The notes beneath the pieces are model-generated. The model searched no databases. It was not told the DNA's origin and worked only from the letters and a program-made list of their open reading frames with translations. Of a stretch of DNA of 51,375 nt, positions 15,167 to 21,282 are shown one piece after another (within the stretch, counting starts at the first letter, position 1; every line of letters begins with the position of its first letter). This DNA comes from Solirubrobacterales bacterium (GTDB lineage Bacteria; Actinomycetota; Thermoleophilia; Solirubrobacterales; 70-9), in NCBI GenBank assembly GCA_030835185.1, contig JAUQWL010000091.1, forward strand, positions 1 through 51,375. The letters are read 5' to 3'. Position numbers and translations under genes: made by a program.

Positions 15167-16981
15167 GTGCCGACGACTGAGGTCCTGACTGAGTTTTCCG
15201 GAGGCCCGGGCTACGAACCCGATTCGAAGAACCTTTACGAAGCATTCCTCGAGACGGTCGCCCGGCAGGGGGACGCGCCGGCGATCGTCGCCGAGGAGGA
15301 AGGCGTCAGGTACTCCTGGAGCGAACTGGCGGAGCGGGTCAAGGCGATCGCCGGCGGGCTGAACTCGATCGGCCTGAGGCGCGGCGACACCGTCAGCTTG
15401 CTGATGGACAACCGTTCGGACTTCATCCCGACCGATCTCGCAGCAGTCTCGCTCGGGGCGGTGCCCTTCTCGATTTATCAGACCTCTTCGCCGGAGCAGA
15501 TCGAATATGTGCTCAGGGATTCGGCAGCCAAGGCGATCGTCATCGAACCCGGCTTCCTGCCGCGCCTGCGAGAGGTCAAGGACGGCCTGCCCGACCTCGA
15601 GCACGTGATCGTGCTCGGCGGCGAGGGCGGCACGATGAGCTACGACGAACTGATCAGACTCGATCCCGGCTTCGATCCCGGACCGATCGCTTCGGGGGTT
15701 ACGCTGGAAGACCCGCTGACCCTGATCTACACCTCCGGCACCACCGGTCCGCCGAAGGGCGTGACCCTGACCCACGGCAACCTGCTGAGAATGCTGAGCT
15801 CCGTCATGCAGGGCGTGATCGACCTTCCCGATACCGACGCGCGGGTGATCTCATGGCTTCCTGCCGCCCACATCGCCGAACGCGGAGCCAATTACTACTC
15901 GGCCGTCATGAAGGGCTTCGAAATCAACATCTGCCCGGATCCCAAGCGGATTGTCGAGTATCTGCCCAAGGTCCGGCCCACCTGGTTCTTCGCTGTTCCG
16001 AGGATCTGGGAGAAGCTCAAGGCGGGACTCGAAAGCATGCTGGCCGGCCTCCCCGACGAGCAACGCGAACAGGCGCAGGGGGGTCTCGACGCCGCAATCC
16101 AGAAGATCCGGCTAGAACAGGCCGGCGAAGAGGTTCCCGAGAAGATCGCGGCCGCCGCGGCCGCCGCAGACGAAGCGCTCTTTTCGGCCCTGCGCACGAA
16201 TCTCGGCTTCGACCAGTTTGTCGCGGTCAGTGTCAGCGCCGCCCCGATCCCGGTCGAGGTGCTCGAGTTCTTCCACGCGATCGGCATACCGATCGGCGAG
16301 CTCTGGGGAATGTCGGAAACCTGCGGAGTGATCACGATCAATCCGCCCGACCGGATCCGGATCGGCACCGTCGGCCCCCCGGTGCCGGGGACGGAGGTAA
16401 AGGTCGCCGACGACGGTGAGCTGCTCTGCCGCAGCCCGTATGTGATGCCCGAATACCGCAACCAGCCCGAAAAGACAGCCGAGACGATCGTCGACGGATG
16501 GCTCCACACCGGTGACATCGGCACCATAGACGAGGACGGCTACGTGACCATTCTCGACCGCAAGAAAGAGCTCATAATCAATGCGGCCGGCAAGAACATG
16601 TCCCCGGCCAACATCGAGGCTCACGTCAAGGCGGCCTCACCGCTGGTCAATCAGTGCGTGGCAGTCGGTGACGGTCGTCCTTACAATGTCGCGCTGATCG
16701 TGCTCGACCCCGACTTCACCCCGGGCTGGGCAGCCCAGAACGGACTCGAGGGTCTCTCGCTCGAGGAACTCGCGGAAAACGAGAAGGTGATCGCGGCGAT
16801 CCAGGAAGGCATCGACAAGGCAGCAACCAAGATGGCCAGGGTGGAACAGATCAAGAAGTTCACGATCATTCCCGGCGAGTGGCTTCCGGGCGGCGACGAG
16901 CTCACGCCGACCATGAAGCTCAAACGCAAGCCGATCTCGGAGAAATACCAGGCCGAGGTCGAAGCCCTCTACGCCGACTGA
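15167..16981 (+). CDS. Long-chain acyl-CoA synthetase (AMP-forming)
   Basis: 604 residues of the ANL superfamily: P-loop-like YTSGTTGPPKGVTLTH at ~187, the WGMSETCG core motif, GWLHTGDIG with the hinge YVTILDRKKELIINAAGKNMSP, and the C-terminal catalytic lysine region MKLKRKPI. It resembles FadD15-type enzymes of actinobacteria, which activate fatty acids as CoA thioesters. GTG start with a strong AAGGAGG site. A 6-bp inverted repeat spans its stop codon and the start of the next gene. Confidence 0.92.
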   Translation: MPTTEVLTEFSGGPGYEPDSKNLYEAFLETVARQGDAPAIVAEEEGVRYSWSELAERVKAIAGGLNSIGLRRGDTVSLLMDNRSDFIPTDLAAVSLGAVPFSIYQTSSPEQIEYVLRDSAAKAIVIEPGFLPRLREVKDGLPDLEHVIVLGGEGGTMSYDELIRLDPGFDPGPIASGVTLEDPLTLIYTSGTTGPPKGVTLTHGNLLRMLSSVMQGVIDLPDTDARVISWLPAAHIAERGANYYSAVMKGFEINICPDPKRIVEYLPKVRPTWFFAVPRIWEKLKAGLESMLAGLPDEQREQAQGGLDAAIQKIRLEQAGEEVPEKIAAAAAAADEALFSALRTNLGFDQFVAVSVSAAPIPVEVLEFFHAIGIPIGELWGMSETCGVITINPPDRIRIGTVGPPVPGTEVKVADDGELLCRSPYVMPEYRNQPEKTAETIVDGWLHTGDIGTIDEDGYVTILDRKKELIINAAGKNMSPANIEAHVKAASPLVNQCVAVGDGRPYNVALIVLDPDFTPGWAAQNGLEGLSLEELAENEKVIAAIQEGIDKAATKMARVEQIKKFTIIPGEWLPGGDELTPTMKLKRKPISEKYQAEVEALYAD

Positions 16982-16994
16982 AACGAAGGTTTCA
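16979..16994 (+). repeat. Perfect 6-bp inverted repeat at a gene junction
   Basis: TGAAAC-GAAG-GTTTCA begins with the stop codon of the synthetase gene and ends directly before the GTG of the next gene. It covers the only purine-rich (GAAGG) ribosome site, so ribosomes finishing the upstream gene would open it. Suggests translational coupling. Confidence 0.6.
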
Positions 16995-18065
16995 GTGTCG
17001 GCCGACGCCGCGATCTTCGAACACATAGCGGTAACCCGCCTGCCTGAACTCCAGACTGCAGGCGGGATGTTCCGTGCCGCGACGAGGGTCGACTCGGTCG
17101 GTGAAGGCGCCCCCGATCCGAGCGTCCTCCGGGCCGGCGCAATCGTCCTGCTCGGCTTGCTCCGGGCCGACGAGGTCGGGTTGAAACACCCGTTCTCAAC
17201 CGGAGCGCTACGCACCCGGGTGCTGGGCGACCTCGGGGGGCCGGGGGTCGGCCCCGGAGAGCTGGGAATCGCGCTCTGGGCCGAATCCCGGGCCGACGGT
17301 GGCGCCGTGAGCGAAATTGCCGGGCTTGTCGAAGGCCGCGTGGCTGCCGCCGGTTTCGAACGGGTTCCCCTTGAGCAACTGGCCTGGCTCGTATCCGGAG
17401 TCGCCGAAGCTTCGGTGAGGGTCGGTGGTGGTCCCCGACTGGATTCCCTGCTCGACCGGGCCGAGCGGGCGCTCTCCGCCAGATTCAACACGCGCAGCGG
17501 CTTTGCACATGACCTCCACCACCGGATCGGTGGCGACCTGACACCGGTGTCCGCCCAGTTTCACTGCCTGACGGCGCTGTGTCACCTGGAACGTGCAGGA
17601 CACGACGGCCAGGCCGGCGAGCTGGCCGGCCGGCTTGCCGGGTCCCTGCTTGCAATCCAGCGCGATGACGGGTCCTGGCCCGGCATCGTCGACCCGAACC
17701 GGGGAGAGGCGGCCGCTTTCTATCCGGTGCTGACCGTGACCCAGGTCTCCCTGGCGCCGATATCACTGCGAAAAGCCGGTGAAATCGGAGTAGACGGCAA
17801 CCTGGGCGAAGCGTCGGCTGACTCGATCGCCTGGGCCCGGGGCAGGAACCGGCTCGGTTTCGACCTCGTCCACGAGCAGGAAGCCCGTCTCGACCGCGGG
17901 CTGATGCCGAAACGGGTTCCAGGAGCCGTTTCCCGCGGCTTCAGTGCCGCCGCGCGGCGGCTGCGCGGGCACCCGGTCGAACCGGAGAGATCCGACTTGA
18001 TCCTCGATCCGGACGTGTCCAGCGAGGATCTCGGCTGGCTGTTGGAGGCATGGGCCGGACGGTGA
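16995..18065 (+). CDS. Hypothetical protein with terpene-cyclase-like QW motif (alpha/alpha toroid candidate)
   Basis: 356 residues, GTG start. The sequence is a series of amphipathic helices with small-residue turns. LLAIQRDDGSWPG (~215-227) fits the QW repeat (Q-x3-G-x-W) of squalene/oxidosqualene-cyclase and prenyltransferase toroids, and FHCLTALCHLERAG resembles a barrel helix. I see no DxDD or DDxxD catalytic motif. It lies between an acyl-CoA synthetase and ispG, close to dxr and uppS. Function unknown; a lipid or isoprenoid role is only inferred from the fold hint and place. The C-terminal ~70 residues are basic and less helical-looking. Confidence 0.75.
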   Translation: MSADAAIFEHIAVTRLPELQTAGGMFRAATRVDSVGEGAPDPSVLRAGAIVLLGLLRADEVGLKHPFSTGALRTRVLGDLGGPGVGPGELGIALWAESRADGGAVSEIAGLVEGRVAAAGFERVPLEQLAWLVSGVAEASVRVGGGPRLDSLLDRAERALSARFNTRSGFAHDLHHRIGGDLTPVSAQFHCLTALCHLERAGHDGQAGELAGRLAGSLLAIQRDDGSWPGIVDPNRGEAAAFYPVLTVTQVSLAPISLRKAGEIGVDGNLGEASADSIAWARGRNRLGFDLVHEQEARLDRGLMPKRVPGAVSRGFSAAARRLRGHPVEPERSDLILDPDVSSEDLGWLLEAWAGR

Positions 18066-18093: not shown

Positions 18094-19350
18094 GTGGCAT
18101 CCAAACGACAGATATTCGTAGGCCGGGTTCCGGTCGGGGGCGGCGCTCCGGTGGTGGTCCAGACCATGACCAAGACGGAGACCGCGAACCTCGAAGCGAC
18201 CATGGAGCAGATCGAGAAGGTCACCGAAGCCGGTGCCGACGTCGTCCGCGTCGCCGTCCCCCGGGACAAGGACGTCGAAGCGTTGAAGACGATCGTCAAG
18301 CGTTCGCCGATTCCGGTGATCGCCGACATCCACTTCAACCACACGCTCGCGCTCAAGGCGATCGATGCCGGTGCCGACTGCATCCGTCTGAATCCCGGCA
18401 ACATCGGCGGGCGCGACAAGGTCGCAGAGGTGGCCGAACTGGCCAACCTGAAGGACGTGCCGATGCGGATCGGCGTCAACTCCGGATCGCTGCCAAAGCA
18501 CCTTCATGCGCTGGAGGCCGAGAACCCGACTGAAGCCCTGGTGACGGCCGCGGTCGAATTCGTCGCGCTGATGGAGAGTCTCGAATTCACCAACTTCAAG
18601 GTTTCGATCAAATCGACCAATGTGCCGGATACGATCGCCGCCAACCGGCTGCTCTCGGAAAAGATCCCCTATCCGATACACCTCGGCATCACCGAAGCCG
18701 GCACCAAGTGGTCCGGCTCGCTCAAGTCGGCGGTCGGCATGGGAGCGCTCCTGGCCGACGGCATCGGAGACACCATCCGGATCAGCCTGTCGACCTTCCA
18801 TGCCGAGGAAGAGGTCAAAGTCGCGTGGGAGATCCTCAAGGCGCTCAAATTGCGCGAGCGCGGACCGGTGCTGATCGCCTGCCCGACCTGCGGCCGCCTC
18901 CAGTTCGACATGGACGCGGTCGTCGCCGAAGTCGAACAGCGGCTCGAATCCTATGAAGAAGCGATCGAGGTCGCCGTGCTCGGTTGCGCCGTCAACGGAA
19001 TCGGCGAAGCCAAGCATGCCGACTTCGGCATCGCCGGAGCCAGGAATGAAGGCGTCGTCTTCGCCCACGGAAAGGCTCTGAAGAAGGTGCCCACCGCAAA
19101 GCTGGTCGACACCCTCTTCGAGCAGATTGACCTGTCGCTCGACCGCGATGGCGAGGTCCGCTTCGACGAAAAGGAGTCGGCAGAGGGTCAGGCCTGGGTG
19201 CAGAAGATCGAAGAAGAGAACGCCGGCGACCTGACTCCCGAGAAGATCGCCGCGATGGAGAAGGAGGCCGCTCTCAGCGACGAGGCCGACAAGCTCCTGG
19301 TCGACGAGAAAATCTCTCCGACCGCAGGACGCCGCTTCACCCGGGCGTAG
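18094..19350 (+). CDS. ispG: 4-hydroxy-3-methylbut-2-enyl diphosphate synthase (flavodoxin)
   Basis: 418 residues. TIM-barrel part contains VVVQTMTKTETANLEATMEQI, VRVAVPRDKDVEAL, VIADIHFNHTLALKA and IRLNPGNIGG. The 4Fe-4S cysteines are in IACPTCGRLQFD (~263 and 266) and VLGCAVNGIGEAKHAD (~297), followed by the conserved Glu. It reduces MEcPP to HMBPP, the penultimate MEP step. A charged, helical C-terminal extension of ~50 residues follows the core. A hairpin element begins 33 nt after its stop and could end transcription. Confidence 0.97.
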   Translation: MASKRQIFVGRVPVGGGAPVVVQTMTKTETANLEATMEQIEKVTEAGADVVRVAVPRDKDVEALKTIVKRSPIPVIADIHFNHTLALKAIDAGADCIRLNPGNIGGRDKVAEVAELANLKDVPMRIGVNSGSLPKHLHALEAENPTEALVTAAVEFVALMESLEFTNFKVSIKSTNVPDTIAANRLLSEKIPYPIHLGITEAGTKWSGSLKSAVGMGALLADGIGDTIRISLSTFHAEEEVKVAWEILKALKLRERGPVLIACPTCGRLQFDMDAVVAEVEQRLESYEEAIEVAVLGCAVNGIGEAKHADFGIAGARNEGVVFAHGKALKKVPTAKLVDTLFEQIDLSLDRDGEVRFDEKESAEGQAWVQKIEEENAGDLTPEKIAAMEKEAALSDEADKLLVDEKISPTAGRRFTRA

Positions 19351-20704: not shown

Positions 20705-20941
20705 ATGAAGACAGCGGTCTCGATTCCGGATGATCTCTTCGCCCAGGCGGATCGGCTGGCTGATCGGCTGGGCAAGAGCCGCAGCGAGGTCTACCGCGAG
20801 GCTTTGGCCGACTATGTGGCCCGCCGTGAGCCGGGGGCGGTTACCAGGGCGCTCGATGAAGTCGCTGAGGATCTCGAAGCCGACCGGGACGCCTTCAGCG
20901 ATGAAGCTGCCCGCCGGACGCTCGGGCATTCCGAATGGTGA
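20705..20941 (+). CDS. Ribbon-helix-helix antitoxin (MazE-type)
   Basis: 78 residues. The N-terminus MKTAVSIPDDLFAQADRLA followed by LGKSRSEVYREALADYV is a typical CopG/RHH DNA-binding fold; the acidic C-terminal half (EDLEADRDAFSDEAA) would bind the toxin. It directly precedes and overlaps a MazF-type toxin by 7 nt. Expected to repress its own promoter through the repeat at the start. Leaderless-type start. Confidence 0.88.
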   Translation: MKTAVSIPDDLFAQADRLADRLGKSRSEVYREALADYVARREPGAVTRALDEVAEDLEADRDAFSDEAARRTLGHSEW

Positions 20942-21282
20942 CAAGCCAGGGCGATGTCTGCTGGGCATCGCTGGAGGATCCGCTCGGATCGGGACCAGGT
21001 TTCCGTCGGCCTGTCGTGGTCGTCCAGGGGGATGAATTCAACGCCAGCCGAATCGCCACGACCGTGATCGTTCCGTTGACGAGCAATCTGCGATTGGCGG
21101 ACGCACCCGGAAATGTTTTGCTGCCGACCGTGCGCACAGGTTTGTCCAAGGATTCCGTGGCGAACGTCTCCCAGATCCTCAGCATTGACCGGAGCCTGCT
21201 CGAAGAGCGCGTCGGTCGCCTCTCGGCGAACGACCTGCTTCTGGTTCTGGCCGGCATTGATCTCGTGCTCGGGCGGGCGTAA
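20935..21282 (+). CDS. MazF/PemK-type mRNA interferase toxin
   Basis: 115 residues. GDVCWASLEDPLGSGPGFRRPVVVVQGDEFN is the usual MazF beta-barrel opening, followed by ATTVIVPLTSNLRLADAPGNVLLP and DSVANVSQILSIDRSLLEERVGRL. This matches the full-length family core including the conserved Arg of RRPVVV. GTG/ATG choice is open: the track start at 20935 overlaps the antitoxin. Cuts single-stranded RNA and is neutralised by the RHH partner. It appears intact although its neighbours are decayed. Confidence 0.9.
   Translation: MVTSQGDVCWASLEDPLGSGPGFRRPVVVVQGDEFNASRIATTVIVPLTSNLRLADAPGNVLLPTVRTGLSKDSVANVSQILSIDRSLLEERVGRLSANDLLLVLAGIDLVLGRA

What the first reader, a model, noticed from the sequence alone, without database searches (positions are those of the whole stretch)
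16995..18065. Unknown protein with a terpene-cyclase QW motif embedded among isoprenoid genes
It has Q-x3-G-x-W inside helix-rich sequence typical of alpha/alpha toroids but no DxDD or DDxxD motif, and lies between an acyl-CoA synthetase and ispG, near dxr and uppS. It may be a non-canonical cyclase, a prenyl-binding protein, or a structural relative with a new role in lipid metabolism.
Basis: partly seen in the sequence, partly recalled or inferred. Interest (0 to 1): 0.5.

Follow-up and report, generated by a model that had tools for sequence, protein, structure and literature searches.

The report
Unnamed toroid protein from glycan family
The gene encodes a conserved soluble ring-shaped helical protein whose fold matches sugar-handling enzymes and whose distant relatives sit in cell-surface sugar-polymer gene clusters, so it is probably not a terpene cyclase; its genus has kept it but changed what looks like the old active site.

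Summary
The gene is real: 356 codons at 16995-18065, under purifying selection (dN/dS mostly about 0.1), in 16/18 genomes of its genus (8/8 good-quality ones), between fadD and ispG at every spanning locus examined. The terpene reading is weak: one QW-like core, no full QW repeat, no DxDD or DDxxD, 5% aromatics; the nearest folds are mostly sugar epimerases and glycosidases, with some squalene-hopene cyclases. The isoprenoid neighbourhood is a core chromosomal block; sister genera have nothing or unrelated genes in the same slot. Seven of eight non-genus relatives read (about 25-31% identical) lie in surface-glycan loci with a UDP-GlcNAc 2-epimerase, often with a UDP-sugar dehydrogenase and a WecG/TagA glycosyltransferase. 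A relative's model hits almost only carbohydrate enzymes. The genus clade replaced residues the relatives share (W, Y, H, R, RPY) but fixed others; WecG is found in only 2/18 of its genomes. Best reading: a cytosolic member of an unnamed glycan-associated toroid family with a re-tooled pocket. The substrate is not shown.

The parts
16995..18065 (+). Toroid gene X, 356 aa, GTG start; predicted cytosolic (alpha/alpha)6 toroid
   Evidence: ORF and spacing; homologs; dN/dS; AF2 model; no signal-peptide-like or strongly hydrophobic segment, maximum 19-residue hydropathy 1.35
16985..16989 (+). GAAGG, Shine-Dalgarno-like, 5 bases before the GTG start
   Evidence: read from sequence
17658..17678 (+). 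QW-like core QRDDGSW (Q222-W228); G226 and W228 invariant in the deep alignment
17670..17744 (+). Most conserved loop plus start of helix 10, residues 226-250 (GSWPGIVDPNRGEAAAFYPVLTVTQ). Glycan-cluster relatives read GxWxWxxDxxxGxVxExYxxYxVHQ. W228, D233, Y243, V248, Q250 retained; the relatives' W, Y and H are here G230, L246, T249
   Evidence: alignments A3 and A5, clade comparison
18018..18038 (+). SSEDLGW (342-348), start of helix 12; relatives have RPYxxGW
15167..16981 (+). Upstream acyl-CoA synthetase (fadD-like); X starts 13 bases after its stop, so probably co-transcribed (inference)
   Evidence: PF00501 E=1.7e-75; order conserved in genus
18094..19350 (+). Downstream ispG/gcpE
   Evidence: PF04551 E=1.3e-136

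Best explanation
X is a cytosolic, single-domain (alpha/alpha)6 toroid of a family that has no Pfam or NCBIfam model. Elsewhere the family belongs to surface-polysaccharide loci, typically beside UDP-GlcNAc 2-epimerase, UDP-sugar dehydrogenase and WecG/TagA glycosyltransferase genes, where it most likely acts on a nucleotide-activated or undecaprenyl-linked sugar (epimerase-, lyase- or hydrolase-like chemistry in the central funnel). In this Solirubrobacterales genus the gene sits in the core rseP-fadD-ispG block. Its putative active-site residues differ from the relatives' and a different set is fixed, so it probably still handles a sugar or glycolipid ligand, but with altered chemistry or as a binding protein. 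Shown: gene, conservation, predicted fold, relatives' genomic context, residue differences. Inferred: sugar ligand, funnel as active site, change of function and its direction.
For: Fold: AF2 pLDDT 87, pTM 0.90, twelve helices. The top PDB hit for the window model is a sugar 2-epimerase, and most of the top 50 are AGE/cellobiose epimerases, GH88/105, GH76 or a polysaccharide lyase. For the glycan-type relative L011 (pLDDT 89) the 50 best hits are carbohydrate enzymes or annotated as such, apart from one putative exported protein. Context: 7 of 8 non-genus homologs read lie in glycan loci with Epimerase_2 (L044, L045, L053-L056, L059), 5 of them next to WecG and/or a UDP-sugar dehydrogenase. 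Inner helices are more conserved than outer ones (majority fraction about 0.64 against 0.47), as expected for a funnel lined by inner helices. Clade-specific differences at positions 47 (Y to A/S), 230 (W to G), 246 (Y to L/F), 249 (H to T/N), 305 (R to P), 342 (R to S/T) and 344 (Y to E), under dN/dS mostly about 0.1, indicate a new constraint rather than decay. The genus clade is one 100/100-supported group on a long branch. WecG is found in only 2/18 genus genomes, so X is uncoupled there from its usual partner.
Against: No sequence-level match to any characterised carbohydrate enzyme; the notable sub-threshold sequence hits are to squalene cyclases (E 0.002 at best) and pectic lyase (0.005). 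TM-scores about 0.6 show fold, not function. Three single-domain squalene-hopene cyclase chains rank 2, 3 and 5 for the window model. Nothing tested here shows a ligand. Few non-genus homologs were found.
Confidence: 0.5

Rival explanations
1. Non-catalytic toroid: the genus clade lost the ancestral catalysis and now serves as a binding, scaffold or regulatory protein, perhaps for envelope precursors made by the surrounding uppS-cdsA-dxr-rseP-fadD-ispG block.
For: The residues fixed across glycan-type relatives and different here are mostly of catalytic or sugar-stacking type (Y, W, Y, H, R, R, Y). The gene is kept between envelope and lipid genes throughout the genus and evolves faster than ispG (X 47-69% against ispG about 82-91% identity to the window across the genus).
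Against: Several polar residues remain invariant (D233, Y243, Q250 family-wide; E97, E107, E138, R298, D300, D338, D345, E351 in the genus), which fits an active site as well.
Confidence: 0.3
2. Non-canonical terpene cyclase or prenyl-binding protein.
For: QW-like core conserved; SHC chains among top fold hits (ranks 2, 3, 5); weak SQHop_cyclase_C match of homolog L008 (E=0.002, below cutoff) and profile match to SHC (E=0.012).
Against: No DxDD or DDxxD, one QW core and no full repeat, 5% aromatics, Y only 0.3%. The SHC sequence match covers only about 36-85 residues around the QW core. Homologs are in glycan loci. The isoprenoid neighbours are a core block whose slot is variable in sister genera. 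Seven listed PDB hits of the window model are terpene-cyclase type; none is in the relative's top 50.
Confidence: 0.08
3. Partner of the fadD-like acyl-CoA synthetase in acyl-lipid or envelope-lipid metabolism.
For: 13-base spacing to fadD, order conserved throughout the genus; X follows fadD in G093 too, after an Antibiotic_NAT gene.
Against: Genomes of sister genera (G362, G005, G296) keep fadD before ispG without X. No acyl-lipid enzyme appears among the listed fold hits. Glycan-locus relatives have no fadD beside them in the stretches read.
Confidence: 0.1

Closest known systems
N-acylglucosamine / cellobiose / glucose 2-epimerases (AGE superfamily)
   Same: (alpha/alpha)6 barrel, single domain of similar size; top Foldseek hits for both models (3vw5, 8h1n)
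   Different: 9-16% identity, TM about 0.6, no sequence-family match; the VHQ histidine of the glycan-type relatives is T/N in the genus clade
Unsaturated glucuronyl hydrolases GH88/GH105 and polysaccharide lyase BACCELL_00875
   Same: Toroid fold (3wiw, 4q88, 5noa); uronic-acid chemistry would suit relatives beside UDP-sugar dehydrogenases
Squalene-hopene cyclases and class II terpene cyclases
   Same: Toroid fold, one Q-x3-G-x-W core; 8paj, 8pak, 8zg5, 5bp8 among window-model hits
   Different: No DxDD, no repeated QW motifs, low aromatics, glycan-locus relatives
Unnamed toroid gene of rhizobial and actinobacterial surface-polysaccharide loci (e.g. WP_341486481.1, WP_276121617.1)
   Same: Homologous over the whole length
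   Different: Relatives keep WxxD...VxExYxxYxVHQ...RPY; the window clade differs at W, Y, H and RPY and lies in a core operon

Membership tests
Unnamed glycan-locus toroid family | Full-length homology and shared invariant residues | tested here: met
   Alignments A3, A5: W228, D233, Y243, V248, Q250, GW347-348, W353 invariant; tree
Unnamed glycan-locus toroid family | VHQ and RPY signature residues | tested here: not met
   VTQ/VNQ (VAQ in one) and SSE/SAE/TAE in the genus clade, SSD in one
Unnamed glycan-locus toroid family | Located in a surface-glycan locus | tested here: not met
   Window gene is in the rseP-fadD-ispG block; the genome's Epimerase_2 gene is on another contig
Squalene-hopene / class II terpene cyclases | DxDD catalytic motif | tested here: not met
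   absent
Squalene-hopene / class II terpene cyclases | Repeated full QW motifs | tested here: not met
   one core, no full motif
Squalene-hopene / class II terpene cyclases | Match above Pfam or NCBIfam cutoff | tested here: not met
   no match for the window protein; best homolog E=0.002, 17.6 against cutoff 26.1 bits
Squalene-hopene / class II terpene cyclases | (alpha/alpha) toroid fold | tested here: met
AGE superfamily 2-epimerases | (alpha/alpha)6 barrel fold | tested here: met
AGE superfamily 2-epimerases | Sequence-family match | tested here: not met
   no Pfam or NCBIfam hit
AGE superfamily 2-epimerases | Catalytic histidines in place | not testable with these tools
   no coordinates available for superposition; the relatives' conserved His is T/N here

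The most novel reading that the evidence does not exclude
A glycan-locus toroid enzyme was taken into the isoprenoid/phospholipid core operon of one actinobacterial genus and re-tooled for a new reaction or regulatory role on an undecaprenyl- or isoprenoid-linked envelope intermediate, giving a new functional class within the (alpha/alpha)6 toroids.
Probability: 0.15. Interest if true: 0.6.

Novelty: new variant of a known kind. Interest (0 to 1): 0.35.

Why it matters
It marks an unnamed toroid family that recurs beside wecB, wecC and wecG genes in rhizobia and actinobacteria, so a step in those surface-glycan pathways may be missing from current schemes. The window genus offers a natural active-site replacement series to probe it. 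It also shows that a single QW core and isoprenoid neighbours are poor evidence for a terpene cyclase.

Tried and rejected
Family searches of the window protein (Pfam, NCBIfam, PHROGs) and PDB by sequence: nothing significant. Viral fold library: one hit under 0.001, an unnamed protein; next come an unnamed protein and a giant-virus glucosidase, uninformative. Terpene cyclase reading: rejected as the main reading (contexts). Functional linkage to isoprenoids through ispG, dxr and uppS: weakened because the fadD/ispG slot is empty, an SGL protein or a SnoaL protein in sister genera. Pseudogene: rejected, dN/dS 0.09-0.19 and no internal stops. Hopanoid pathway: SQHop_cyclase_C was not found in the own genome and is over cutoff in only 2/18 of the genus. 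Literature: no paper found on this family or on the small SHC structures 8paj/8pak.

Full report
Observation. The ORF 16995-18065 (+) encodes 356 aa from a GTG with GAAGG five bases upstream. It begins 13 bases after the fadD stop and ends 28 bases before ispG. Pfam confirms the neighbours uppS, dxr, M50 protease, acyl-CoA synthetase, ispG and proS. The reported motif is QRDDGSW (Q222-W228), once; DxDD, DDxxD and the full QW repeat pattern are absent.

The gene is real and conserved. It is found in 16 of 18 genomes of the genus, and in all 8 of good quality, at 47-69% identity to the window protein. Named hits are Solirubrobacterales MAGs. Pairwise dN/dS is 0.09-0.19. The order fadD-X-ispG holds in every genus locus examined that spans it; some contigs break off within it.

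Fold. AlphaFold2 on 16 homologs gives pLDDT 87 and pTM 0.90, twelve helices, i.e. an (alpha/alpha)6 toroid. PDB neighbours are sugar 2-epimerases (rank 1), small squalene-hopene cyclases (ranks 2, 3, 5), GH88/105, GH76, a polysaccharide lyase, and class II terpene cyclases further down; TM about 0.6 at best. Inner helices are more conserved than outer ones (majority fraction about 0.64 against 0.47; the inner/outer assignment is by alternation). No signal peptide or transmembrane segment is apparent (judged from hydropathy only), so the protein is probably cytosolic.

Relatives. Profile searches found orthologs in three further genera of the order (G093, G228, G397), one elsewhere in the phylum (G628) and ten Rhizobiaceae plasmid records. 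None has a Pfam or NCBIfam assignment above cutoff. Of the eight non-genus loci read, seven are surface-glycan loci. G228 has Epimerase_2, a polysaccharide flippase and GT2. G397 has Epimerase_2 and a GT. Pararhizobium A13 and P. qamdonense have X-WecG-wecC with wecB nearby. S. terangae has X-WecG-UDP-sugar dehydrogenase and wecB; R. gallicum has wecB-X-WecG; G628 has X, UDP-sugar dehydrogenase, wecB and a flippase. The eighth, G093, has X after fadD and an Antibiotic_NAT gene in the core block. WecG enzymes are thought to add the second sugar to an undecaprenyl-diphosphate-linked sugar (PMC11340318). The model of relative L011 (pLDDT 89) has, in its top 50 PDB hits, carbohydrate enzymes (or proteins annotated as such) throughout except one putative exported protein, and no terpene cyclase.

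What differs in the genus clade. Five glycan-type sequences share residues that the window clade does not have (window numbering): 47 Y to A/S, 185 F to V, 230 W to G, 246 Y to L/F, 249 H to T/N, 305 R to P, and 342-344 RPY to S/T-S/A-E, while W228, D233, Y243, V248, Q250 and the C-terminal GW...W stay invariant. G093 keeps the VHQ/RPY form although it lies after fadD. The genus clade forms one 100/100-supported group with a long stem, but the root and so the direction of change are not shown. WecG is found in only 2 of 18 genus genomes and not in the own genome, so the usual partner is missing where X is kept. The own genome does have one Epimerase_2 gene, on a contig with arg-type and translation genes, and UDP-sugar dehydrogenase-type genes.

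The isoprenoid neighbourhood. In sister genera of the family, ispG follows rseP directly (L072, L075, L078, L079, L081, L082), or fadD directly (L089), or the fadD-ispG gap holds an SGL protein (L087) or a SnoaL protein (L085). The slot is variable, so proximity to dxr, uppS and ispG is weak evidence of an isoprenoid function.

Conclusion. Fold confirmed; cyclase reading unlikely (0.08). Best: a member of an unnamed glycan-associated toroid family, retained and altered in this genus (0.5), with a non-catalytic derivative as the main rival (0.3). The sugar ligand, the active-site location and the change of function are inferences; no ligand or activity was tested and residues could not be placed on coordinates.

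Noticed in passing
L043:8366-9340 (G093): An Antibiotic_NAT (PF02522, aminoglycoside 3-N-acetyltransferase family) gene lies between fadD and the toroid homolog in a core chromosomal block; possibly a sugar N-acyltransferase rather than a resistance gene.
   Followed up: partly
L050:7031-7912 and L046:6883-7758: In some genus members a further gene sits between ispG and proS (leucine carboxyl methyltransferase family PF04072 in L050; a similar sequence start in L046), not seen at that place in the window.
   Followed up: partly
window:19350-22832: The stretch between ispG and proS has lower GC3 and no convincing gene except a possible PemK/MazF-like ORF at 20935-21282 (recalled resemblance, not tested); in several relatives proS follows ispG closely.
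   Followed up: no
L091:11220-12464 (own genome contig C237): The genome's only Epimerase_2 (wecB-like) gene found lies beside ribosomal-protein, phe-tRNA-synthetase-like and arg-like genes (judged from sequence starts), not in a glycan cluster.
   Followed up: partly
L092 and L093 (G059:C6, G188:C50): Two genus members carry squalene-hopene-cyclase-type ORFs (750 and 686 aa open frames) not found in the other genomes of the genus.
   Followed up: no
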